NCBI GenBank assembly: GCA_937907415.1
Contig: CALCHY010000136.1
Location: forward strand, 1 to 12,638
Direction of reading: 5' to 3'
Source: an uncultured Trueperaceae bacterium
GTDB taxonomy: Bacteria > Deinococcota > Deinococci > Deinococcales > Trueperaceae
Length of the DNA stretch: 12,638 bases
Shown here piece by piece: positions 1,399 to 10,067 of this stretch. The notes under the pieces are model-generated. The model had not been told where the DNA came from, searched no databases, and saw nothing but the letters and a program-made list of their open reading frames with translations. Each line of letters opens with the position of its first letter. Position 1 is the first letter of the stretch. The position numbers were made by a program, and so were the translations under genes.

Positions 1399-2535
1399 CT
1401 ACCAACTACCCACGCCGCGGCCGCGGCCGATGAGCCAGAAGAACACCGGCCCGCCAACGACGGTCATGAGCACCCCGAGCGGCAACTCCAGCGGCGCGAT
1501 GAGGTTGCGCGCGAGCGCGTCACCGAATGTAACGAGCGCAGCACCACCGAGCAGGGCGGCAGGGAGGAGGACGCGGTGATCGTCACCCAACAGCCTACGT
1601 AGGATGAACGGCACGACTAGCCCAACGAATGCGATGCTGCCGCTATACGCCACGACCGTGCCGGTCGCCACGGCGGCCAGGGCGCCGGCGAAGAGCCGGA
1701 CACGCATGACGTCGACACCGAGCGAGGAGGCGGTGCTCTCGTCCAGCAGCACCATGTTCAGCTCCGGCGCCAGCCTCCAGAGGAAGACGGCGACGACAAG
1801 TATGAGCGGGGCGGCGAGGGCAACGTCACGCCAGAAGATGCCGGTTAGTCCTCCGAACGTCAGGTACGAAGCGTCCGGCATGCCAGGCTTGCGGACGGCG
1901 TTGACAAGCAACGTCACCACGCCAGCCAGGAACAGTTGCAGGGCAACGCCTGCGAGTACCAACGTGAGCCGGTCGGAGCGGCCGTGACGCCTCGCGAAGC
2001 CCATGAGCCACATGGCGCTAACCAGCGCCCCGCTGCAGGCGAACACGGGCAGCATCCAGCGGCCCAAGCTGACGGCTCCGACGATGTAGGCGAACACCAC
2101 CCCGAGCGTGGCTGCTCCACTAACACCTAGCAGGGTCGGATCGGCGAGTTGGTTGCCGAAGGAAACCTGCAGGGCCGCGCCAGCGATCGCCAGGGCCGCG
2201 CCGACGATGAAGCCCATCAGCACGCGTGGGAGGCGGATGTTCCACAGCACCGCACTCTGCTGCTGCGTGAACTCGATGCCAGTGGCTATCCCCGCCTTGT
2301 CGAGTGCGATGGCGACGGTCTGTTGCGGGCTGATCTTCACGGCCCCCCACCCGAGCGCAACGAGGAGGCTCGCTACCGCTAGCGCTCCGAGCACGAGAAG
2401 CGTGGCGCGCTTGCGCCCCGCAGCGCTGCTTGGGGCTACGGGGCGCATGTTCTGCTCTGGCGTTGGGGCGCCAGTAGCCCGTGGTGGGGCTACTGGCCTG
2501 ATTCGCGTGCCTACCGGTGTGTCTTCCGGTGTCAC
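1399..2535 (-). CDS. FecCD-family ABC transporter permease (haem/cobalamin/siderophore import, HmuU/BtuC-like)
   Basis: A 378-residue polytopic membrane protein of the FecCD/BtuC permease family. Its hydrophobic segments begin at about residue 44. It has the family signature NQLADPTLLGVSGAA near residues 128-142 and the cytoplasmic coupling region LLGDDHR near 314-320. The usual Pro-His of the VGLVVPH stretch is Pro-Phe here (around residue 310). The GTG start at 2535 overlaps the stop of the binding-protein gene (GTGA), which suggests translational coupling. The first ~40 residues are Pro/Ala-rich with an internal echo (RPVAPPRATG and RPVAPSSAAG) and are not part of the family fold. An in-frame ATG at 2448 would remove 29 of them. 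The permease would form a dimer with an ATPase not encoded in this window. Haem is favoured by the partner protein, but cobalamin is plausible because metH follows. Confidence 0.9.
   Translation of the reverse strand: MTPEDTPVGTRIRPVAPPRATGAPTPEQNMRPVAPSSAAGRKRATLLVLGALAVASLLVALGWGAVKISPQQTVAIALDKAGIATGIEFTQQQSAVLWNIRLPRVLMGFIVGAALAIAGAALQVSFGNQLADPTLLGVSGAATLGVVFAYIVGAVSLGRWMLPVFACSGALVSAMWLMGFARRHGRSDRLTLVLAGVALQLFLAGVVTLLVNAVRKPGMPDASYLTFGGLTGIFWRDVALAAPLILVVAVFLWRLAPELNMVLLDESTASSLGVDVMRVRLFAGALAAVATGTVVAYSGSIAFVGLVVPFILRRLLGDDHRVLLPAALLGGAALVTFGDALARNLIAPLELPLGVLMTVVGGPVFFWLIGRGRGVGSW
2471..2496 (-). other. Perfect 10-bp hairpin at the binding-protein/permease junction
   Basis: CCAGTAGCCC at 2471-2480 is followed after 6 nt by its exact reverse complement at 2487-2496. 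The hairpin lies 39 nt inside the permease reading frame if GTG 2535 is the start. It lies wholly between the two genes if the in-frame ATG at 2448 is the real start. It is GC-rich with no U-tract, so it looks more like an mRNA stabilising or translation-tuning stem than a terminator. Confidence 0.5.
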
Positions 2536-3380
2536 CGCAGGGAGTAAAGGTAGTCGACGAGTTCCGTTACGGCGTCGCCCGTGCGCACTCCTAGTCCGAG
2601 GAAGTACAGGTCCTCGAAGACGATGACGTTGCGGTTCTTGGCGGCAGGCGTGTCTTTGACGCCGGGTATCTCCAGCACGGCGTCGATGCTACCCACCGCT
2701 GAGATGCCGCGTTCCGTCACGATGATGACGTCTGGCGCGGCCGCGACGATGGCCTCTGGCGTGAACGGCACGTTGCCGACGAAGCCGGCTTCCTTGCCGA
2801 CGTCGATGCCGCCAGCGGCCTCGATGAGCACGTTAGATGCCGTGTTCGCGCCGCCAGCGAACTGCATGCTGCGCGCGCCGAGGTAGAGGAAGAGAACGCG
2901 CGGGTGCGGGTTCAGTTCGGCGCCGCGCGCTTCCGCCGCGGCGAGCTGCGCAGAGAGAGCGTAAGCGAGCTCGCTGCCGCGGTCACTCGCGCCAACGAGG
3001 TCCGCGATCAGCTTGATGTTCTCAACGGGCGTGTTGAGCGAGGGTTCGCTGCCAAGGTGCACGACCTGAACGCCTGCTGCCTCGAGCTGGTCGAGCACTT
3101 CTGGTGGTCCGGCCTGATTGTTGGCGAGTACGAGGGTGGGTTCGAAGGACATGAGGGCCTCGGCGGAAAGGCGACCGTAGTAGCCGACGTTCGGCAGGTC
3201 GTTGGCGGCCGCTGGGTAGTTCGAGGTGGCGTCGACGGCAACGAGCATGTCCTCTGCGCCTAGGGCGTAAACGATCTCCGTCGCTTCTCCAGCTAGCGAG
3301 ACGATGCGTTGGGCGGCCGCGACCGGCAGCAGCAGCAGCGCGGCGCCGAACAGGGTGAGGAGGGCGGTGCGGGACTTCAT
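2532..3380 (-). CDS. Periplasmic haem/cobalamin-type ABC transporter substrate-binding protein (HmuT/BtuF-like)
   Basis: A 282-residue exported protein with a hydrophobic signal peptide (about residues 5-20) and a likely cleavage after AAA at residue 23. There is no lipobox cysteine. The mature part is a class III periplasmic binding fold: RIVSLAGEATEIVYALGAED near the N-terminus, a long central helix, and a C-terminal lobe ending with LGLGVRTGDAVTELVDYL. The stretch NVGYYGRLSAEAL aligns with the HmuT/ShuT/PhuT region holding the haem-ligating tyrosine (Tyr67 or Tyr68 here). That places it nearer the hemin-binding branch than classical BtuF. It would deliver ligand to the permease encoded directly downstream. 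The ATG at 3380 is preceded by AAGGAG with a 6-nt spacer. Haem is the first guess for the ligand; corrinoid is the alternative given metH two genes on. Confidence 0.88.
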   Translation of the reverse strand: MKSRTALLTLFGAALLLLPVAAAQRIVSLAGEATEIVYALGAEDMLVAVDATSNYPAAANDLPNVGYYGRLSAEALMSFEPTLVLANNQAGPPEVLDQLEAAGVQVVHLGSEPSLNTPVENIKLIADLVGASDRGSELAYALSAQLAAAEARGAELNPHPRVLFLYLGARSMQFAGGANTASNVLIEAAGGIDVGKEAGFVGNVPFTPEAIVAAAPDVIIVTERGISAVGSIDAVLEIPGVKDTPAAKNRNVIVFEDLYFLGLGVRTGDAVTELVDYLYSLR

Positions 3381-3410
3381 GGAGGACTCCTTAATGGGGT
3401 GGGCGGCGCT

Positions 3411-3448
3411 TAATGCGGAAAGTGCCCACGCGTGCTGGACGCATTATC
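3411..3448 (-). promoter_or_regulatory. Candidate promoter and dyad operator for the transporter operon
   Basis: TAATGCG at 3411-3417 and its reverse complement CGCATTA at 3440-3446 form a long dyad, with the 8-bp palindrome CACGCGTG (3427-3434) nearly at its centre. On the minus strand the outer arm overlaps GATAAT (3448-3443), a good -10 match. No convincing -35 box stands at the standard distance. The position, about 60 nt before the binding-protein start, fits a repressor site. The regulator is unknown. Confidence 0.35.
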
Positions 3449-3519
3449 CGGAGGCTGCCCTCGAGAAGTGTCATGAAACTGTCGCGGCACCTTGCGTATT
3501 GGGCGCTCGGGCGGGGCGC

Positions 3520-3525
3520 TAAGAT
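3520..3525 (+). promoter_or_regulatory. Candidate leaderless -10 box for amn
   Basis: TAAGAT ends 5 nt before the ATG at 3531 and matches the TANNNT -10 pattern. No Shine-Dalgarno is seen between it and the start. A transcript from this box would begin at or within a base or two of the start codon. The -35 region is weak. Confidence 0.4.
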
Positions 3526-3530
3526 GGCGC

Positions 3531-4439
3531 ATGGAGAACGACAAGGACGCGTTGGAGCAAGCCGCGGCGGTGCATGACGCCGCCAGCGCAGGTCCCGAGC
3601 ATGGCCACGCCGATGACGACAGCGCCGCCGGTCGGCCGCTCAACCTCAACCTCATCTACAACAACCCAGACAAGTGGAGCATCGGCCGCGAGATCCTCGA
3701 GCGCTACACGGGCGCCGCCCCGGAGGCCATGCAGAAGCAGGTCCTGCTAACGAACTTCCAGTACTACCTCGACCGCTTCGAGGGCATGGCGGACGACGTC
3801 GTCACCACGCGCGGATCGGCCATGATGGCGCGCCACAGCGCGAAACTCGGGGTCTCGATCATCAACTTCTCGGTCGGTTCCCCAGTAGCTGCGTTGATCA
3901 TCGAGGTGCTAGCAACCGCCGACCCGAAGGCCGTGCTGTTCTTGGGCATGTGCGGCGGTCTGCACCGTTCGTTGCAGGTTGGAGACTTCGTGCTGCCCAC
4001 CGCAGCCATCCGTGACGAGGGCGCCTCGAACCACTTCATGCCCCCGCAAGTGCCGGCCCTACCGACGTTCAAGGTGCAGAAGTTCGTCTCCCAGATCATC
4101 GTTGAGCGCGGCCTCGACTACCGCACTGGGGTCGTGCACACGACCGACTACCGCTTCTGGGAGTTCGACGAGCGCTTCAAGCAGCAGCTCTACGAGGAAC
4201 GCGCGCTGGGCATAGACATGGAGACGGCGACCCTCTTCTCGGTCGGGTTCGCTAGCAAGGTCCCCATCGGCGCGCTGCTGCTCGTGTCCGACTTGCCGCT
4301 CAAGCGCGGCGGGATCAAGACCAAGGACTCCGCCAGGGCGGTGTTCAGGGAGCACACTGACAAGCACATCGAGGTTGGTATTCAGGCGATGAGCGAGATC
4401 GCTGAGCGCGGGGAGCATATTCGGCATTACCGCTGGTAG
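3531..4439 (+). CDS. amn: AMP nucleosidase (short form)
   Basis: A 302-residue cytoplasmic enzyme of the purine nucleoside phosphorylase/MTAN superfamily. It is predicted to hydrolyse AMP to adenine and ribose 5-phosphate in purine salvage. Residues 37-82 form the AMP-nucleosidase-specific entry region (NLNLIYNNPDKWSIGREILE). FLGMCGG is at 137-143, GDFVLPTAAIRDEG at 151-164, and the nucleoside-binding GIDMETATLF at 227-236, followed by SDLPLKRGGIKTKDS. The first ~35 residues are acidic, Ala/His-rich and probably disordered. ATG 3531 was preferred over an in-frame TTG at 3492 because it follows a -10-like box directly and the extra residues look non-coding. It is divergent from the transporter operon. 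The last codons (His-Tyr-Arg-Trp-stop) are inside a repeat that recurs at 6130 and 7937. A broader MTAN-like nucleosidase is the main alternative. Confidence 0.87.
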   Translation: MENDKDALEQAAAVHDAASAGPEHGHADDDSAAGRPLNLNLIYNNPDKWSIGREILERYTGAAPEAMQKQVLLTNFQYYLDRFEGMADDVVTTRGSAMMARHSAKLGVSIINFSVGSPVAALIIEVLATADPKAVLFLGMCGGLHRSLQVGDFVLPTAAIRDEGASNHFMPPQVPALPTFKVQKFVSQIIVERGLDYRTGVVHTTDYRFWEFDERFKQQLYEERALGIDMETATLFSVGFASKVPIGALLLVSDLPLKRGGIKTKDSARAVFREHTDKHIEVGIQAMSEIAERGEHIRHYRW

Positions 4440-4463
4440 AAATCCACCGGTGGGAAAGTGTCC
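4428..4463 (+). repeat. Repeat copy A: amn 3' end plus downstream flank
   Basis: This copy starts with TACCGCTGGTAGAAA (4428-4442), which contains the amn stop codon, then a CCACCGGTGG palindrome (4444-4453) and GGGAAAGTGTCC (4452-4463). Related copies lie at 6130 and 7937. Together they separate amn, the abiE module, the hipBA module and the pseudogene zone. Confidence 0.75.
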
Positions 4464-4488
4464 GGCATCGGGTCCGGAATTGTACGCG

Positions 4489-5340
4489 TCAAGCCTCATC
4501 TTCACTTAGCGCCTTAACCAGGCGGTTTAGTGACATCGCAGCGTCGTGGACCGTGGGAGAGTAACCCGTTAGGTCTAGCGCCGCTGCAAATCTTTGGTAC
4601 TCCACCTCCCAGGCGTCTGTGGGCACGTCGATCGCGGTCGGCAGATCGTGCGTAGCGCGGCGTGTGAAGGTCGCGGCGGCCGCGTCTCGTAGCGCCTTCA
4701 TGGGCGGGAGGCCACGGCGTTGGAGGAGCATCACGTCGACGAGGTCCTTGACGCGGGTGTTGAGGCGCGCGTCGGGCCGCGGCAGCGAGAGGGCGTGGAG
4801 CTTCTCCGCGAGGTGGACCTCGAGTGGGATCGCTGGGGTCTCGAGTGCGGGCAGGCCGGCGAACGAGAGGTCGATGCCGCCCTTTAAGAGGTCGGTTCGG
4901 TCGGGGACGGCGTCGCCCAGGCCGACGTCGAGTGGGAAGGGCTGGAAGCGCTTCCCGCCTAGGAGTGGGACCACGGTTAGGCGTTCGCCGCCCAATGGTG
5001 CGCCTTGGGGCATCCTGGCGGTGGTCGTCTCGATCCTGAACGACAGGTGGTCGCCCAGGTCGATCTCGCCCGCGTCGCGCAGGGCCTCCACCACCTCGTT
5101 GGCTGGTAGGCCCCGGATCGACAGGTCGAGGTCTTGCGTGGCGCGGGCCTGGTGCAGGCGTAACTCGAGAGCGTAGCCGCCTTTGAGGATCGCCTGTTGT
5201 GGCAGGGCGGTTGACGTTCTGGCCAGGAAGCGCTCCATCATGGTGCGTTTCAGGAGGCGGTTCAGATCCTTATCTGGATGTTGGTTGCGGAGGTTGGCCG
5301 CTAGGGCGGCCCTGAAGGCGGCCGCGTCCTCGTACCGCAT
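4489..5340 (-). CDS. abiEii: AbiEii/AbiGii-family nucleotidyltransferase toxin
   Basis: A 283-residue toxin of the type IV TA/abortive-infection AbiE system, a DNA polymerase beta-like nucleotidyltransferase. Visible motifs: LKGGYALELR at 52-61 (glycine motif), the metal-binding acidic pair in QDLDLS (Asp70, Asp72), a third acidic residue in FPLDVG (Asp138), EKLHAL at 179-184 and VKDLVDV at 197-203. All key residues are present, so it should be active. Its ATG lies 1 nt after the abiEi stop (TGA-G-ATG), so the pair is one operon. The gene ends about 25 bp from repeat copy A and converges on amn. Related AbiEii proteins are bacteriostatic and transfer nucleotides; the target here is unknown. 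Confidence 0.93.
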   Translation of the reverse strand: MRYEDAAAFRAALAANLRNQHPDKDLNRLLKRTMMERFLARTSTALPQQAILKGGYALELRLHQARATQDLDLSIRGLPANEVVEALRDAGEIDLGDHLSFRIETTTARMPQGAPLGGERLTVVPLLGGKRFQPFPLDVGLGDAVPDRTDLLKGGIDLSFAGLPALETPAIPLEVHLAEKLHALSLPRPDARLNTRVKDLVDVMLLQRRGLPPMKALRDAAAATFTRRATHDLPTAIDVPTDAWEVEYQRFAAALDLTGYSPTVHDAAMSLNRLVKALSEDEA

Positions 5341-5341
5341 C

Positions 5342-5959
5342 TCAGGCGCCTTCCGTGGTCCACGCCAGCCGTCGTTTCAGCTCAGGGTGGCGGGTGCGGG
5401 GGATGAGCTCCAGGTAGGCGGCCAGCCGCTCGGAGTCCGGCGCTAGCGCGCGCCGCCTGATGAGGCCGCGGGACAGTGCTTGCTCGTAAGCGAGTTGGAG
5501 CTGTTCGAGCGGGTAGCCGCCCTGCGCCAGGTCGAGGAGGGTCCTGGTGGGGTCCGTGAAGCGGAGGATGCCTTCCATGTGCGCCTCGTTCGGCGCGAGT
5601 TCCGCTCTGTGCAGGGTGACGTCGGGTAGCGGCCGCATGCGGAAGCTCGGGGGTACGGTGAGGTGGAGCTTTTCGGGGAAGGCGTCGCCTAGGTCGAAGT
5701 GCCTGAGGGCCGTTTCGTGACTAAGAGCTACTGCCGGGTCGAGGCGGCCCCAGAGCATCAGGACCGCCTCGCGCTCCTGCTCGGTGGTTGGGTAGGCGGT
5801 GAAGCGGTACACCCCGCGCTCCGGACGCTCGAGCCGGCCTGCCCGGAACTGGTAATGGATCGCTGGTCGCGTTAGGCCAACCGCTTCGGCCTGGCTGGTG
5901 GTGAAATGGCCGTGTTGCCGGGTGGCCAGTTCCTGTAGTTGCCGCCAGCGCGAATCCAT
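5342..5959 (-). CDS. abiEi: AbiEi-family antitoxin/transcriptional autoregulator
   Basis: A 205-residue AbiEi-type antitoxin. Residues 1-55 form the N-terminal winged helix (HGHFTTSQAEAVGLTRPAIH, then LERPERGVYRF). The C-terminal domain follows with SHETALRHFDLGD at 80-92, KLHLTVPPSFRMR and TRTLLDLA at 138-145. Known AbiEi proteins neutralise AbiEii and repress their own promoter through inverted repeats. The perfect palindrome directly upstream fits that. The ATG at 5959 is only 6 nt from a strong -10 box, so the mRNA is probably leaderless. It is transcribed first in the abiEi-abiEii operon. Confidence 0.92.
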   Translation of the reverse strand: MDSRWRQLQELATRQHGHFTTSQAEAVGLTRPAIHYQFRAGRLERPERGVYRFTAYPTTEQEREAVLMLWGRLDPAVALSHETALRHFDLGDAFPEKLHLTVPPSFRMRPLPDVTLHRAELAPNEAHMEGILRFTDPTRTLLDLAQGGYPLEQLQLAYEQALSRGLIRRRALAPDSERLAAYLELIPRTRHPELKRRLAWTTEGA

Positions 5960-5965
5960 GCGCCG

Positions 5966-5994
5966 ATGTTAAACACTGTTTAACGTATGTGCAA
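5966..5994 (-). promoter_or_regulatory. abiE promoter with internal palindromic operator
   Basis: On the minus strand TTGCAC (5994-5989) and TAACAT (5971-5966) are separated by exactly 17 bp. The palindrome GTTAAACACTGTTTAAC (5968-5984), two perfect 8-bp arms around one central base, fills most of the spacer and overlaps the -10 box. A protein bound here would block RNA polymerase. AbiEi is the obvious candidate. The start codon follows 6 nt after the -10 box, predicting a leaderless transcript. Confidence 0.75.
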
Positions 5995-6040
5995 GTATTT
6001 GCTGTTGCATTCAGGGCTCCGGGCCGAGGCTTGTGTGCGT

Positions 6041-6069
6041 GGGGCTGCCGCACGTAGGCCAGCAGCCCC
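6041..6069. other. Hairpin in the gap between abiE promoter and repeat copy B
   Basis: GGGGCTGC (6041-6048) and GCAGCCCC (6062-6069) form a perfect 8-bp stem around a 13-nt loop. There is no T-run on either side, so a classical terminator is not supported. It could insulate the abiE promoter from hipA read-through. No gene is seen between 5990 and 6246. Confidence 0.35.
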
Positions 6070-6129
6070 AACCAGCGAATGGTCCCCGACCCTTGCCTTA
6101 GGTGTAGCTTGATTCGGTTCGTGCGTTAC

Positions 6130-6165
6130 TACCGCTGGTAGAAAGCCCCTGGCGCGGAAATGTCC
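6130..6165 (+). repeat. Repeat copy B: amn-3'-end-like, between the two TA modules
   Basis: It shares TACCGCTGGTAGAAA with copy A and continues as GGCGCGGAAATGTCC, with one base missing relative to A. Upstream, CGT-TAC-TAC-CGC-TGG-TAG would read Arg-Tyr-Tyr-Arg-Trp-stop, against Arg-His-Tyr-Arg-Trp-stop at the end of amn. The shared segment with copy C extends left to TACTACC at 6127. Confidence 0.7.
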
Positions 6166-6179
6166 TTGACCCCGTCCCT

Positions 6180-6195
6180 AGGCGCCCGTGCGCCT
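6180..6195 (-). terminator. Weak hairpin downstream of hipA
   Basis: AGGCGC (6180-6185) and GCGCCT (6190-6195) pair around the 4-nt loop CCGT, about 50 bp after the hipA stop. The U-tract is missing, so terminator function is tentative. Confidence 0.25.
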
Positions 6196-6246
6196 TGGCA
6201 GGGTACTTCGCGAGTGAGGCCGACGTTTTCGCCAGAGCCAGACAGT

Positions 6247-7497
6247 TCAGCTCCGCTGCACGTCTGTTGGCAGGCCGGCTGCGCGACCCTCGAGGAGGTT
6301 CTGCGTGAACCCTGTGATGTCTGCCGTCAAGGCTGGGTGGGCGCGAGCGTGCGGTTTTTCGTGCCGGACGGTTTCGAGCACTGTGTCGAGCGCCTCGTCG
6401 ATAGCCGTTTCGGGCTCGGCGATGCCCCAGGAGTGGGCTTCTTCGATGAGATGGCTCCGTGTGATATGCGCATGGCGGTACTCGCCGGCGACCGCGAGCG
6501 CCATCTCCCCGTCGTTCCGTTGGTGCGCTTGTGGCACGAAGTCGTAGGCCGGAGCGAGCTCCACGGTTCCCTCTGCGAGGTGAAGGAGGGAGATGTTCTT
6601 CGCATGCATATCCAAGTTTCCGACGGCGGCGGCTAGTACCATCATCCGGAGGAGCGTTTCGCGGCTCGCGGGCGCTGTGTACGGTCCGAGCACGCGCGCG
6701 ATGCGCGCCAGGCTGACCTTCCCGCCGTACCGCTCGTACTTCTCGTCGCCGCTCGCGCCGAGGGCCTGGTTGAAGTCCTCCTGGTGGAGGCGTGACTGTG
6801 GTGCGTCAGGGGAGCGGTCGTAGCGCGCGATGACCAGCGCCGGCACGCCTGCGAACTCTTGGATCCACGTGCGGTATGGGATCAGCCCTACGGCGCGGGC
6901 CAGGCGGGCGCCGTACTCCTCGTCGTAGATGAAGGTGGGGAGGCCCTCGGGCACGGGCTTGAGGATGTGGGTCGAGGGATAACCGTCGAGTGCTCTGTTC
7001 CAGCCGTCCGCGGTATGCGCCAGGACGATCTTGTCCTGCACTCCGGCCAATGACGACTTGCCGCCCCGGGGCTTGTTGCCTAGCGGGAAGTCCTGCACGT
7101 TCTCGAGCAGCTCTGCCACCCCGGCCTCGTCGAGCGGTTCGAGCCTTGGTTGGCGGGGCTCGCCGGGTACGTCCGGGTCCCAGATCTGCAGCGCCCCGGC
7201 GACGTCGCGACCATATCGGCGGAGCAGTCCGATGGTGTCGCTCTCGGGCACGTTCGCTTCCTGAGCCAGCCGCTTCAGCATGCGGCCTTCGGGAAGGAGC
7301 TCTTGGAAGAAGTTGCGCCGCTTCTGCTTGTGCGCTCGAGTAGGCACCACTGCTAGCGGGACGGCGACCGACAGTATGGGGCTGTCGATACCGAATGTCC
7401 TCACGGCGCCTGGCTCGAACTGCAGGTCGAACGTGCGCCAGTCGCCCTCCAGCGTGCCGATTCTGGTGCCGTACAGTTCGACGACCAGGTCAGCCAT
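6247..7497 (-). CDS. hipA: HipA-family serine/threonine kinase toxin
   Basis: A 416-residue HipA-like toxin kinase of a type II TA system, cytoplasmic. The N-terminal HipA subdomain is residues 1-105 (GTRIGTLEGDWRTF, LPEGRML at 68-74). GGKSSLAGVQDK at 145-156 is the flexible P-loop with the likely autophosphorylated serine (Ser148 or Ser149). STHILKP at 175-181 holds the ATP-binding lysine (Lys180), and HQEDFNQALG is at 238-247. The catalytic loop NLDMHAKN has Asp296 and Asn301, and the metal-binding Asp319 is in AYDF. All kinase residues are present, so it appears functional. Its ATG overlaps hipB by 8 nt (ATGGCTGA), so synthesis is coupled to the antitoxin. HipA of E. coli phosphorylates glutamyl-tRNA synthetase; the target here cannot be read from sequence. 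A decayed paralogue lies at 8907-9261. Confidence 0.95.
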   Translation of the reverse strand: MADLVVELYGTRIGTLEGDWRTFDLQFEPGAVRTFGIDSPILSVAVPLAVVPTRAHKQKRRNFFQELLPEGRMLKRLAQEANVPESDTIGLLRRYGRDVAGALQIWDPDVPGEPRQPRLEPLDEAGVAELLENVQDFPLGNKPRGGKSSLAGVQDKIVLAHTADGWNRALDGYPSTHILKPVPEGLPTFIYDEEYGARLARAVGLIPYRTWIQEFAGVPALVIARYDRSPDAPQSRLHQEDFNQALGASGDEKYERYGGKVSLARIARVLGPYTAPASRETLLRMMVLAAAVGNLDMHAKNISLLHLAEGTVELAPAYDFVPQAHQRNDGEMALAVAGEYRHAHITRSHLIEEAHSWGIAEPETAIDEALDTVLETVRHEKPHARAHPALTADITGFTQNLLEGRAAGLPTDVQRS

Positions 7498-7729
7498 GCT
7501 TCTCGGGCGATCTGATGGTGGCGGAGAGTTCGACGTCTACCTCGCGCATCATCGCGAACAGCCGCTCCATGAAGATGGAGGGTTTTCCGGCCTCGATCTC
7601 CCAGATGTAGCGTTGGGTGGTGCCGAGGCGCTCGGCGAGTTCGCGTTGGCTCAAGCCTCTGAGCAGGCGGGCTTGTTGCAGGATCCTTCCCAGCGACTCG
7701 GCGCTTGTGACCTTGCCCGTGAACTCCAC
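7490..7729 (-). CDS. hipB: HipB-type helix-turn-helix antitoxin
   Basis: A 79-residue Xre/HipB-like DNA-binding antitoxin. The helix-turn-helix is residues 26-47 (SQRELAERLGTTQRYIWEIE), followed by a short dimerisation tail. The GTG at 7729 is chosen because AGGAGG precedes it with a 5-nt spacer. It is first in the hipB-hipA operon. It presumably neutralises HipA and represses through the GTAGTC/GACTAC array just upstream. Confidence 0.92.
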   Translation of the reverse strand: MEFTGKVTSAESLGRILQQARLLRGLSQRELAERLGTTQRYIWEIEAGKPSIFMERLFAMMREVDVELSATIRSPEKHG

Positions 7730-7752
7730 TTCCGCCTCCTGACTGCTGAATC

Positions 7753-7812
7753 GTAGTCATCCTATGCGACTACTAAAAGGTAGTCAAGCTTCCTGACTAC
7801 GACATAGTAGTC
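7753..7812 (-). promoter_or_regulatory. hipBA promoter within a five-element operator array
   Basis: GTAGTC or GACTAC occurs five times in alternating orientation at 7753-7758, 7768-7773, 7780-7785, 7795-7800 and 7807-7812. Start-to-start steps are 15, 12, 15 and 12 bp. This makes two 21-bp dyads GTAGTC-N9-GACTAC at 7753 and 7780 plus an extra half-site. On the minus strand TTGACT (7787-7782) and TAGGAT (7764-7759) form a promoter with a 17-bp spacer inside the array. E. coli HipB binds comparable spaced dyads (TATCC-N8-GGATA). Confidence 0.8.
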
Positions 7813-8074
7813 AAGGCGCTGCTGGCGACGGGCTGGTTAAGAGCAATCCGCGGAGACGTACGTTCGAGAGCGAGAGCCTCTGGGTCGAGAAGGCTCGTTG
7901 GTGGCATGCCTGGCAACCAAAACAATCGAACCCTACTACCGCTGGTGAAACTACCGGCGGGAAAGTGTTTCCGACTCTTACGCCCCTTGCGGTTTCCCGT
8001 CGTCAGGGGGCCGATGTCTGGCCCTTTCAGCCGCCTTGATCCTCCGTCGACGCCCTTGCTGCGGAGTTCTAGGT
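7813..8074. other. Stretch without a recognisable gene, containing repeat copy C
   Basis: Between the hipBA operator array and the abiEii remnant I see no convincing coding sequence on either strand. A 93-codon minus frame (7797-8078) crosses the repeat and resembles nothing known. The only structure is repeat copy C at 7937. Confidence 0.5.
7937..7970 (+). repeat. Repeat copy C: amn-3'-end-like, between hipBA and the pseudogene zone
   Basis: TACCGCTGGT-GAAA, then ACCGGCGGGAAAGTGTTT, aligns with copies A and B with single-base gaps. The segment TACTACCGCTGGT (7934-7946) is identical to copy B at 6127-6139. The frame reads Tyr-Tyr-Arg-Trp followed by TGA instead of TAG. Confidence 0.7.
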
Positions 8075-8188
8075 TCACCTCGTAGTGCCGCTTAGGAACG
8101 GCCCGATGAAGGCGCTGATGTCTGTCATCAGGGCATGGAAGCTATCGGCGGAGTTCTGGCGGATGCGCTTCAGGTAAGCGCTCCACTG
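8075..8188 (-). pseudogene. AbiEii-type toxin, C-terminal remnant
   Basis: The minus-strand frame from 8188 to the TGA at 8077-8075 reads QWSAYLKRIRQNSADSF and then a helix ending FIGPFLSG. This resembles the C-terminal end of many nucleotidyltransferase AbiEii toxins (Gln-Trp, Ala-Tyr/Phe-Leu-Lys/Arg, and a final Phe-x-x-Pro-Phe/Val-Leu). Upstream the frame closes at a stop after a few unrelated residues, so the rest is lost here. It may be the missing tail of the plus-strand AbiEii fragment at 8733-8906, separated by an inversion. The match is short and made from memory of the family. Confidence 0.5.
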
Positions 8189-8266
8189 GGAATGCCGACA
8201 TCGGCGGTGTCCCTACAAAGGCCCAATACTTGTGAGCATGTGTAGGGTTTCTGTCTGGACGTGTGA

Positions 8267-8732
8267 GTGATCGACCCCGTGACGATATTCAAGGAGCACG
8301 GTGGCCAGATGCGGATGAGCGAGGCGCTGGCGGCTGGGGTGTCGCGCTATCGGCTCTACAAGATAGTGGATGAGGGGGTGCTCGAGCGGGTCAGCCGCGG
8401 CGTCTACCGGCTGGCATAGCTGCCGCCCATCGGCGACCCGGATCTGGCGGTGGTTGCCCTGCGGGTTCCGCGGGCGGTGGTGTGCCTGGTGTCGGCTCTT
8501 GCCTTCCATGGTCTCACGATCCAAGTTCCCCACGCGGTCTGGATCGCGCTGCCCCGGGGAGTGGACACGCCGCAGCTCGATCACCCGCCGCTGGCGGTGC
8601 ACCGTTTCGCGCCGGATGCGTTCGAGGCCGGCGTTGAGCCCACGAGATGGATGGCGTGATGTAGGGGCCCTTCTGGAGTACGCGCGCATCTGCCGGGTAG
8701 AGCGGGTAATGCGCCCGTACCTGGAGGCGCTG
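8267..8732 (+). pseudogene. AbiEi-type antitoxin pseudogene (second subfamily)
   Basis: From GTG at 8267 the frame encodes IDPVTIFKEHGGQMRMSEA and VSRYRLYKIVDEGVLERV, the winged-helix start of the transcriptional-regulator type of AbiEi. At 8417-8419 a TAG interrupts RGVYRLA-stop-LPPIGDPDL; a GAG glutamate codon probably mutated. The frame resumes (VVALRVPRAVVCLVSALAFH, VPHAVWIALPRG) until about 8640. There roughly 50 residues are missing and the frame shifts by one. The end (LLEYARICRVERVMRPYLEAL, from 8658) is the usual C-terminus. The protein is clearly not made intact. It belongs to a different subfamily from the abiEi gene at 5342. Confidence 0.8.
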
Positions 8733-8906
8733 CTGCTTAGGGTTTGGGAGGCGCCGGTGGGTCGGCCCACATTGGACATCGACCTCCTGGGGCGTATGGA
8801 CAACGAGATTGACGCCGTCGCAGCGGTGCTGCGAGAGGTGATCCAATTGTCGGTGGAGCCGGACGGCGTTGTTTTCGATGTCGGGTCGCTGGAGGCAAGC
8901 CGGATC
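8733..8906 (+). pseudogene. AbiEii-type toxin, internal N-terminal-half remnant fused to abiEi remnant
   Basis: Directly after the abiEi C-terminus the same frame reads LRVWEAPVGRPTLDIDLLGR, then a helix and LSVEPDGVVFDVGSLEASRI. This is the nucleotidyltransferase core of a second AbiEii subfamily, with the acidic pair in LDIDLL. The start of the toxin, including its glycine motif, is deleted, so the antitoxin end runs straight into the toxin core. At 8906/8907 the similarity stops and hipA sequence of the opposite strand begins. Confidence 0.75.
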
Positions 8907-9261
8907 GCGGAGCAGGCCGATGGTGTCGCTCCCTGGCACGCCGCTCCCTGAGCCAGCCCCTTCAGCATGCGGCCTTCGGGAAGAAGTTCCTGGAAGTAGT
9001 ATCGCCGCTCTTGCTTGTGTGCTCTCGTGGGCACTGCCGCCAACGGGACGGCGACCGACGAGACGGAGCTGTCGATGCCGAACGTTCTCACGGCGTCCCG
9101 TTCGAACTCCAGGTCGAAGGTGCGCTGGTCGCCCCTCAACGTGCCGATGCGGGTGCCCAAGCGCTCGGCCAGCTCGCGTTGGCTCAGGCCTCTGACCAGG
9201 GGGCTTGCTGCAGGATGCTTCCTAGAGACTTGGCGGTTGTGACCTTGCCGGTGAGCTCCAT
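8907..9261 (-). pseudogene. hipB-hipA fusion remnant (second hipBA module)
   Basis: The minus strand from ATG 9261 begins MELTGKVTTAKSLGSILQQA, closely like intact HipB. It is frameshifted by a one-base loss (CCGCCTG versus CCCCTG type change) and continues RGLSQRELAERLGT. There it passes directly into the hipA sequence GTRIGTLRGDQRTFDLEFE, joining hipB codon ~37 to hipA codon ~10. HipA similarity continues through FQELLPEGRMLKGLAQ. A second one-base loss near 8940 shifts the frame, SDTIGLLR follows, and similarity ends at 8907 against the abiE remnant. Upstream only one GACTA half-site remains of the operator array. The copy is a divergent paralogue of the intact module, not a recent duplicate. 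Confidence 0.85.
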
Positions 9262-9377
9262 CCGCCTCCCGACGAGGAAATGCTAGTCGGAGGTCAGTGG
9301 TGGTGAGCCGGAGCTATGGAATCCGTGGCGTTAGGAGAGCTTCCGGACCGACAAGGCCCGTGGAGGCGCCCGCACGA

Positions 9378-10067
9378 CTAACTCGCACTCCCCACCCCGA
9401 TGCCCGCGTCTCGCGCCCGTTGGGCAGCGGCCCTGCGGTCACTGACCTCGAGCTTCCCGAGGATGGTGGAGACGTGGTTGCGCACGGTCTTGCACGTCAC
9501 TTGGAGGTGGCGCGCTATCTCGGCGTTGTTCAGGTCCTCTGCGATCAACGCCAGTACCTCGCGTTCGCGCTTGGTCAAGTCGGGGAACGGTAGTGCGCCC
9601 CCTGATACGGACGCGGCGGAGAAGTAGCGGCTGAAGCGCTGGACGACGTTCGAGTCGAACAACGCCTCGCCGTTCGCGGCGGCCATGATGGCGCGCTCGA
9701 GCTCCGCCTTGCTGCCGCCCTTCAGGACGTAACCCTTGGCGCCGGCTTTCATGGCGCGGAACACGGTCTCGTCGTCAGCGAACATCGTCACCATGATGAT
9801 GGCGGCGTTGGGATTGTTGGCCAAGATGCGGCCAGCCGCCTCAACCCCAGAGAGCCCGGGCATGCGCGCGTCCATCAGGATCACTTGCGGGTTCAGACTC
9901 TCCGCCAGCGCCACTGCTTCGCTGCCGTCATGCGCCATCCCGACGACTTCGCAACTGCTAAGCGTGGCGACCAAGAGTGCTAGCCCCTCGAGGAAGAGTT
10001 CGTGGTCATCTGCTACCAGGACCCTCGTCGTTGGCGCCAACTCGGGGGTGGCGGCCATGGCGGTCAC
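9378..10067 (-). CDS. NarL/FixJ-family DNA-binding response regulator
   Basis: A 229-residue two-component regulator. The receiver domain (about 14-130) has the acidic pair Asp20-Asp21, the phospho-acceptor Asp66 in ILMDARMPG, Thr94 and Lys116 in YVLKGG. The LuxR-type helix-turn-helix is at about 164-220 (LTKREREVLALIAEDLNNAEIA, VRNHVSTILGKL). The GTG at 10067 overlaps the kinase stop (GTGA), so the two are co-translated; an ATG three codons in (10058) is the alternative. The target genes are not shown. The cupredoxin-like gene upstream in the same direction is a candidate only by proximity. Confidence 0.95.
   Translation of the reverse strand: MTAMAATPELAPTTRVLVADDHELFLEGLALLVATLSSCEVVGMAHDGSEAVALAESLNPQVILMDARMPGLSGVEAAGRILANNPNAAIIMVTMFADDETVFRAMKAGAKGYVLKGGSKAELERAIMAAANGEALFDSNVVQRFSRYFSAASVSGGALPFPDLTKREREVLALIAEDLNNAEIARHLQVTCKTVRNHVSTILGKLEVSDRRAAAQRARDAGIGVGSAS

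What the first reader, a model, noticed from the sequence alone, without database searches (positions are those of the whole stretch)
4428..7970. Three copies of an amn-3'-end repeat bracket two different toxin-antitoxin modules
A ~35-bp motif (core TACCGCTGGTAGAAA, then GGCGGGAAAGTGTCC-like) occurs at 4428, 6130 and 7937, and the gaps hold exactly one TA operon each (abiE, then hipBA) in the same orientation. Copy A contains the amn stop codon; B and C also read Tyr-Arg-Trp-stop (TAG, TGA). A gene 3' end repeated downstream is the hallmark of site-specific integration that regenerates the target gene. The window may therefore show tandem TA cassettes accreted at an amn-based attachment site. 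No integrase is in the window, so the motif could instead be the end of an insertion element or MITE.
Basis: partly seen in the sequence, partly recalled or inferred. Interest (0 to 1): 0.8.

Follow-up and report, generated by a model that had tools for sequence, protein, structure and literature searches.

The report
Toxin-antitoxin cassettes stacked behind amn
In a Truepera-like bacterium, small toxin-antitoxin gene pairs sit one after another behind the end of a housekeeping gene, each bounded by the same short repeat, which suggests that an enzyme inserted them at this one spot, although the enzyme itself has not been found.

Summary
In detail: three copies of TACCGCTGGT (4428, 6130, 7937) bracket one abiE and one hipBA operon. 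The first 10 to 15 nt match the native 3' end of amn. The rest of the ~36-nt motif belongs to the left ends of the inserts, not to amn. Behind copy C the window holds relics of two more abiE types and a second hipBA: a decaying array of five TA modules. In one class of right ends the box TCAAAACAAT stands at -21 and again at -100 (once -99) in 5 of 5. Terminal inverted repeats are lacking, and no tyrosine recombinase was detected at the locus. Most likely these are integrase-less cassettes added by site-specific recombination at an amn 3'-end attachment site (0.72). The kind is known (islands behind Dehalococcoides ssrA, PAISt at bacA); this variant (TA units of 1.7 to 1.9 kb, fixed end boxes) seems new.

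The parts
3531..4439 (+). amn (AMP nucleosidase, PNP_UDP_1); its 3' end TACCGCTGG-TAG is the presumed attachment site
   Evidence: start codon position read
4428..4463 (+). copy A: amn 3' end plus left end of the AbiE-I cassette
4489..5340 (-). AbiEii toxin, AbiE type I, intact
5342..5959 (-). AbiEi antitoxin, AbiE type I, intact
6069..6078 (+). partial inverted copy of the core (CAACCAGCGA), 62 nt before core B; same offset in 3 of 3 class-U2 right ends
   Evidence: offset printed there as 54 because the last 8 nt had been trimmed off
6130..6165 (+). copy B: right end of AbiE-I (class U2) plus left end of hipBA
6247..7497 (-). HipA, intact
7490..7729 (-). HipB (HTH_3), intact; GTG start
7838..7847 (+). 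degenerate box TAAGAGCAAT (7 of 10) at -100 from core C
7917..7926 (+). box CCAAAACAAT (9 of 10) at -21 from core C
7937..7971 (+). copy C: right end of hipBA (class U1) plus left end of an AbiE type III cassette
   Evidence: 90% over 80 nt with the G023 left end
8036..8197 (-). relic: C-terminal 54 aa of AbiEii type III, with stops
8267..8921 (+). relic: AbiEi/AbiEii type II, a stop and missing parts
8907..8920 (.). 14-nt micro-homology (GCGGAGCAGKCCGA; 13 of 14 to hipA) at which the AbiE-II relic is fused to the second hipA relic
8942..9261 (-). relic: N-terminal part of a second HipA and pieces of a second HipB
9378..10067 (-). response regulator, right flank of the array (its relative also stands right of a core in G027)

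Best explanation
The 3' end of amn is the attachment site of a site-specific recombination system. Small integrase-less cassettes, in this window each one toxin-antitoxin operon, were added one after another at this site. Each cassette as a circle would carry [right end]-TACTACCGCTGGT-[left end]. Recombination within ACCGCTGGT joins amn to the new cassette's left end, which also supplies the amn stop codon, and leaves the cassette's right end joined to whatever lay behind amn. This yields amn|A|AbiE-I|B|hipBA|C|older relics. Shown: repeats, unit structure, one unit with the same ends in two contexts, conserved end boxes, decay of the distal part. Inferred: that a tyrosine recombinase acts in trans, that ACCGCTGGT is its overlap region, the circular form, and that the amn-proximal side is the usual entry side.
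For: The amn end is native. In G029 abiE type II lies between amn|core and core; in G027 the same abiE type II has core-bounded ends but an ABC block, not amn, on its left. G023 has abiE type III between two cores, and its left end recurs at window C. Exact direct repeats flanking the six units are 10 to 24 nt. Left ends travel with the cassette and carry the amn stop codon in the two cases that can be compared: TAA in G029 stands in the AbiE-II left end seen away from amn in G027; TGA in G027 stands in the left end that G023's abiE type III has away from amn. Right ends of class U1 (recognised by the box near the core): a second TCAAAACAAT-like box (7 to 10 of 10) stands at -100, once -99, in 5 of 5 (AbiE-II twice, AbiE-III, hipBA, ABC block); 0 of 1000 shuffles had more than 2 of 5. 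Class U2: partial inverted core at one offset in 3 of 3. 3 of 74 amn loci have downstream direct copies, 0 upstream, 0 inverted. Model R1 over 111 genomes: 20 places in 15 genomes, of which 7 array sites (3 of them were in the model), 10 amn 3' ends, 2 S7 gene ends, 1 other.
Against: No recombinase gene is near: 19 tyrosine recombinases from these genomes find nothing in 102 amn-related loci at E<=0.01 (the same search hits 17 of 17 control loci; serine recombinases and transposases were not tested). No close relative with an intact but unoccupied core was seen. AbiE-II is about as diverged between G027 and G029 (87% over 1339 nt, 82% over the left 464) as amn (86%), which fits inheritance in place rather than recent movement. 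Nine loci with TA relatives outside the arrays have the 10-mer core in 0 of 9, and in G028 and G030 hipBA or its relic lies in the amn region without a core. In G027 the right flank of AbiE-II resembles an AbiE-II left end (24-nt identical repeats on both sides), which a duplication would also explain. AbiE-I and hipBA are neighbours in both window and G027. Folding gives no consistent hairpin. Site discovery was seeded on the core, so invariance of ACCGCTGGT is partly circular.
Confidence: 0.72

Rival explanations
1. Decayed larger integrative elements (a variant of the same att model, so the odds overlap): each unit was once an integrase-bearing island or prophage at amn; everything except the addictive TA operon nearest an end was lost.
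For: The same att-like logic; TA operons tend to survive deletion (established knowledge). G028 carries a 4.8-kb insert behind amn with MazEF and other genes. Relics show deletion at a micro-homology. AMP nucleosidase genes are mentioned as an integration site of Burkholderia phages in PMC5247547 (passages). One unit in G027, the ABC block, is 6.8 kb.
Against: The five TA units measure 1.7 to 1.9 kb core to core and right ends of different kinds share fixed box offsets. No tyrosine recombinase remnant was found.
Confidence: 0.35
2. Transposon or MITE with a preferred target and a long target-site duplication.
For: Exact direct repeats of 10 to 24 nt flank each unit; in G027 the repeat around AbiE-II is identical over 24 nt.
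Against: No significant terminal inverted repeats in 6 of 6 units (shuffle fractions 0.09 to 1.0). The ORFs scanned in window units A-B and B-C are TA proteins (smaller ORFs were not scanned). Left ends and stop codons differ between flanks in most units, as expected of hybrid att sites.
Confidence: 0.08
3. Xer/dif-driven modules, like the TA-bearing dif modules of Acinetobacter plasmids.
For: Similar logic: modules with TA genes between Xer sites (PMC13141974, abstract). Related Xer-like recombinases were found in the 6 genomes compared (G002 was not compared); the five recombinases tested are below NCBIfam cut-offs.
Against: The sites are GC-rich direct repeats without AT-rich XerC/XerD-like arms (that consensus is recalled). 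A dif-like pattern search over 7 genomes gave no evident common site (inconclusive).
Confidence: 0.05
4. A tolerated insertion spot between convergent genes, with repeats spread by homologous recombination or duplication.
For: The region behind amn is variable also where no second core occurs: G024, G028, G030.
Against: Downstream copies of the amn end are absent from the other 71 of 74 amn loci. The units are of five kinds, so duplication of one unit does not make the repeats; box spacing is fixed.
Confidence: 0.07

Closest known systems
Tandem genomic islands behind ssrA in Dehalococcoides (PMC3146451, passages read)
   Same: Tandem units behind one gene, bounded by direct repeats of its 3' end (20 bp there); 15 islands without integration modules, discussed there as possible cis-mobilizable elements and accretion; conserved motif next to the repeat
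   Different: There tmRNA gene, serine recombinases in the integration modules, reductive dehalogenase cargo; here a protein gene, mainly TA operons, no recombinase found, 1.7 to 1.9 kb TA units, box pair at -100/-21
PAISt at the 3' end of bacA in Streptomyces (PMC4057263, passages read)
   Same: Protein-gene 3' end as attachment site; internal copy of the gene end splits the island into modules that excise separately
   Different: 105 and 569 kb modules with a tyrosine recombinase; 8-bp palindrome; a 141-bp duplicated gene end
dif modules of Acinetobacter plasmids (PMC13141974 and PMC6449649, abstracts and outlines)
   Same: Small modules, often with TA genes, between short recombination sites; no recombinase of their own (this last point recalled)
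   Different: Xer sites on plasmids; here GC-rich direct repeats at a chromosomal gene end
Integron gene cassettes (established knowledge; PMC8618304 and PMC9668308 seen in the listing only)
   Same: Arrays of small cassettes, TA-rich in chromosomal integrons (recalled), trans-acting recombinase
   Different: No GTTRRRY core (recalled consensus) in the place of the core, no integron integrase found at the locus, no consistent folded site, gene orientation not fixed

Membership tests
Elements integrated at a gene 3' end by site-specific recombination | Direct repeat of the gene's 3' end at the far boundary | tested here: met
   the repeat is short (10 to 15 nt beside amn)
Elements integrated at a gene 3' end by site-specific recombination | Gene remains intact, its end regenerated | tested here: met
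   amn ORF ends normally in window, G027, G029; stop codon lies in the cassette's left end
Elements integrated at a gene 3' end by site-specific recombination | Unoccupied site in relatives | tested here: inconclusive
   G002 has amn next to peptidase E without insert, but its amn end is TATCGGTGG
Elements integrated at a gene 3' end by site-specific recombination | Linked recombinase | tested here: not met
   tyrosine recombinases only: with control; so the units can be called at most cis-mobilizable or trans-mobilised
Cis-mobilizable elements | No integrase, functional attL/attR, mobilised by a neighbour | not testable with these tools
   absence of a tyrosine integrase and presence of att-like repeats seen; function needs experiment
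dif modules | XerC/XerD binding sites at both ends | tested here: inconclusive
   no resemblance to the recalled consensus; dif of this family not found
Integron cassettes | attC with GTTRRRY core and folded structure, integron integrase | tested here: not met
   core at the 12 sites is ACCGCTGGT; inconsistent folding; no tyrosine recombinase near
IS element or MITE | Terminal inverted repeats | tested here: not met
   6 of 6 units without significant terminal inverted repeats
AbiE type IV TA | AbiEi antitoxin and AbiEii nucleotidyltransferase in one operon | tested here: met
   (AbiEi scanned for types I and III; type II AbiEi only by similarity)
HipBA type II TA | HipB HTH antitoxin and HipA kinase fold | tested here: met
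   Couple_hipA, HipA_C and HTH_3 matches; kinase residues not checked

The most novel reading that the evidence does not exclude
Trueperaceae harbour a stand-alone cassette system: compact TA cassettes with their own two-class attachment ends (arm-like boxes at -100 and -21, or an inverted core at -62) that are added to, deleted from and reordered within an array by a recombinase encoded elsewhere, with the amn 3' end playing the part that attI plays in an integron.
Probability: 0.27. Interest if true: 0.8.

Novelty: new variant of a known kind. Interest (0 to 1): 0.6.

Why it matters
How toxin-antitoxin operons without transposases move and pile up in chromosomes is an open question. Here a defined insertion site, unit boundaries, two classes of end signals and a layered record of intact and decayed units are visible in one locus, so the mobility of single TA operons becomes testable with ordinary recombination assays. 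The conserved box pair is also a tag with which the missing recombinase can be searched.

Tried and rejected
Solo IS ends, a first idea from the look of the repeats: rejected, no terminal inverted repeats. attC-like folding: z-scores of 12 sites inconsistent; G027_r is negative at both lengths (-3.4, -3.5), window C at the short one (-2.5), the others weaker or positive; rejected as a general feature. Inverted core in U2 ends: offset constant in 3 of 3, but shuffle fractions per site are 0.063, 0.007 and 0.013 and it rests on three sites; kept as a lead. The 'dist' values are 8 too small. Viral and phage origin: the 15-mer core gave 54 stretches in viral contigs, which I judged near the number expected by chance (own estimate, stretches not inspected); other patterns gave 22 (not inspected), 1 (read, not alike) and 0 stretches; the TA proteins gave no relative, the phage collection no match. 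Plasmids: one weak DNA match; relatives of AbiEii-II there are all under 60% identity (642 records). Candidate recombinases in seven genomes by PF00589, 26 places: 17 loci fetched; no core next to them in the part of the output that was shown, which was cut. dif search inconclusive. Rfam at gathering scores: nothing in the window.

Dropped or unchecked rows: of the 12-mer places (33 of 39 genomes) I opened four outside the arrays: three S7 gene ends and one in G023 that I could not assign. The 74 loci count some genomes twice, and L001 had no downstream sequence. Other model hits opened: G006 reads as an amn end on a second contig, G003 as one S7 end and one unassigned place, G042 as an S7 end. 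G027's contigs C12 and C42 are assigned to one array by gene order only; the gap is not bridged. G023's array starts at a contig end and its amn was not found. Papers outside the library were not searched.
Full report
What is there. The window is from a relative of Trueperaceae: the closest amn loci are Trueperaceae/Deinococcales genomes. The repeat core TACCGCTGGT occurs at 4428, 6130 and 7937 on the plus strand, more than chance allows (0 of 200 shuffles reach three matches). Between A and B lies one AbiEi/AbiEii operon, between B and C one HipB/HipA operon, both on the minus strand.

Native or not. In 19 of 19 loci printed amn ends in IRHY(R/K)W-stop, and where the codons are TAC CGC TGG the core is simply the amn end. 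15 nt are common to A and B, 13 to B and C. The remaining part of the 36-nt motif is not amn: it is the left end of the next unit and recurs with it (G023 abiE type III and window C, 90% over 80 nt; G023 and the G027 amn site, 97% over 38 nt).

The same thing elsewhere. G029: amn ends GGCATTACCGCTGGTAAATAGTTTC, then AbiEi/AbiEii type II, then ATCGACCGCTACTACCGCTGGTAAAACGTTTC. G027: amn with core, a 6.8-kb block with MacB/FtsX and ABC ATPase genes (two more proteins without Pfam match), core, abiE type II, core; on another contig an AbiE-I remnant fused to hipBA, core, response regulator. G023: core, abiE type III, core near the start of a contig. So five kinds of unit (six units) have cores at both ends, and abiE type II keeps its ends in two contexts. 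The five TA units measure 1.7 to 1.9 kb core to core. G002 has no insert (peptidase E about 15 nt behind amn); G028 has 4.8 kb between the same two genes, with MazEF, and no core. Of 74 amn loci tested, 3 have downstream direct copies, 0 upstream, 0 inverted. Three of four 12-mers in G027 and two of four in G023 are in the arrays; of the other three, two are S7 gene ends and one is unassigned. Nine loci with relatives of these TA proteins outside the arrays have no 10-mer core (0 of 9), so the core belongs to these cassettes and not to the TA families at large.

End signals. Twelve sites were compared. Right ends fall into two classes, which I set by eye from the sequence next to the core. In class U1 (window C, G027_m, G027_r, G029_r, G023_r) a TCAAAACAAT-like box stands at -21 (8 to 10 of 10 matches; this is how the class was recognised) and, as the independent result, a second at -100, once -99, in 5 of 5 (7 to 10 matches). 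With the sequence upstream of -40 shuffled, 924 of 1000 trials had none of five, 74 had one, 2 had two. In class U2 (window B, G023_l, G027_C42) a partial inverted copy of the core stands at one offset in 3 of 3 (62 nt; one search prints 54 because of trimming). Boxes plus a core look like arm-type and core-type sites of a bivalent tyrosine integrase; that is inference from recalled systems. No terminal inverted repeats, no consistent hairpins.

The layers in the window. Behind C the similarity is first to the AbiE-III left end and C-terminus (to 8197), then to AbiE-II (8267-8921), then, fused at a 14-nt micro-homology (8907-8920), to a second hipA/hipB (8942-9261), then comes the response regulator whose relative also follows the last core in G027. 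The amn-proximal units are intact and the distal ones broken, as accretion on the amn side predicts. Against a simple clock: AbiE-II is as diverged as amn between G027 and G029, so it seems inherited in place, and AbiE-I with hipBA is an old pair that lies near amn in the window but near the regulator in G027.

Mechanism. In the two cases that can be compared, the amn stop codon sits in the left end of the adjoining cassette: TAA with AbiE-II (G029; the same left end occurs away from amn in G027), TGA with the GAAGC-type left end (G027; also in G023 away from amn). The window's TAG with AbiE-I has no second copy to compare. Hybrid sites with a constant 9-nt middle and exchangeable halves are what conservative site-specific recombination leaves; a target duplication would give equal flanks, which is seen over a longer stretch only around AbiE-II in G027 (24 nt). 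The site search was seeded on the core, which weakens the argument from invariance. The recombinase is not known. Seven genomes searched hold tyrosine recombinases elsewhere, with related Xer-like ones in the 6 compared (the five tested are below NCBIfam cut-offs), and 19 of these sequences find nothing in 102 amn-related loci, while they hit 17 of 17 control loci.

What is known. Tandem islands bounded by copies of a gene end, some without integration modules, are described behind ssrA in Dehalococcoides (PMC3146451, passages) and, as two modules, at bacA in Streptomyces (PMC4057263, passages); TA-bearing modules between Xer sites are described as dif modules (PMC13141974, abstract). AMP nucleosidase genes are named as integration sites of Burkholderia phages (PMC5247547, passages). 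Searches listed, by title and start of abstract, no paper on TA cassettes at amn or TA arrays in Trueperaceae; subscription papers are not covered. Hence: new variant of a known kind.

Noticed in passing
window 7739-7815: Several GTAGTC/GACTAC inverted repeats in front of hipB, likely HipB operators; similar boxes stand before hipB in G027 and in the hipBA relic of G014.
   Followed up: no
L191 (G028) about 1824-6618: A 4.8-kb insert between amn and peptidase E, compared with G002, holds a MazEF pair and other genes but no core repeat, so the spot receives insertions by more than one route.
   Followed up: partly
L239 (G014) 3103-3694: A hipBA relic starts right behind amn in a more distant genome; an internal deletion joins about the first 56 aa of HipA to about its last 66.
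   Followed up: partly
L245, L247, L249: The ribosomal protein S7 gene 3' end (named from its sequence) also reads HYRW-stop and shares the 12-mer ACTACCGCTGGT, yet in the three copies opened an elongation-factor gene follows and no TA module was seen among the printed ORFs.
   Followed up: partly
L211, L215, L218, L222 and L216, L227, L220: Trueperaceae carry paralogous Xer-like recombinases, related to each other and below the NCBIfam cut-offs where tested; their dif site was not found.
   Followed up: partly
L001 9200-9202: The contig of a close relative ends exactly at the amn stop codon, as assemblies do at repeats; an array may follow there.
   Followed up: no
L169 (G029) about 7186-9380: About 2.2 kb between the last core and the response regulator holds a DUF4870 gene and little else recognisable; whether this is native sequence or further decayed cassettes is open.
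   Followed up: no
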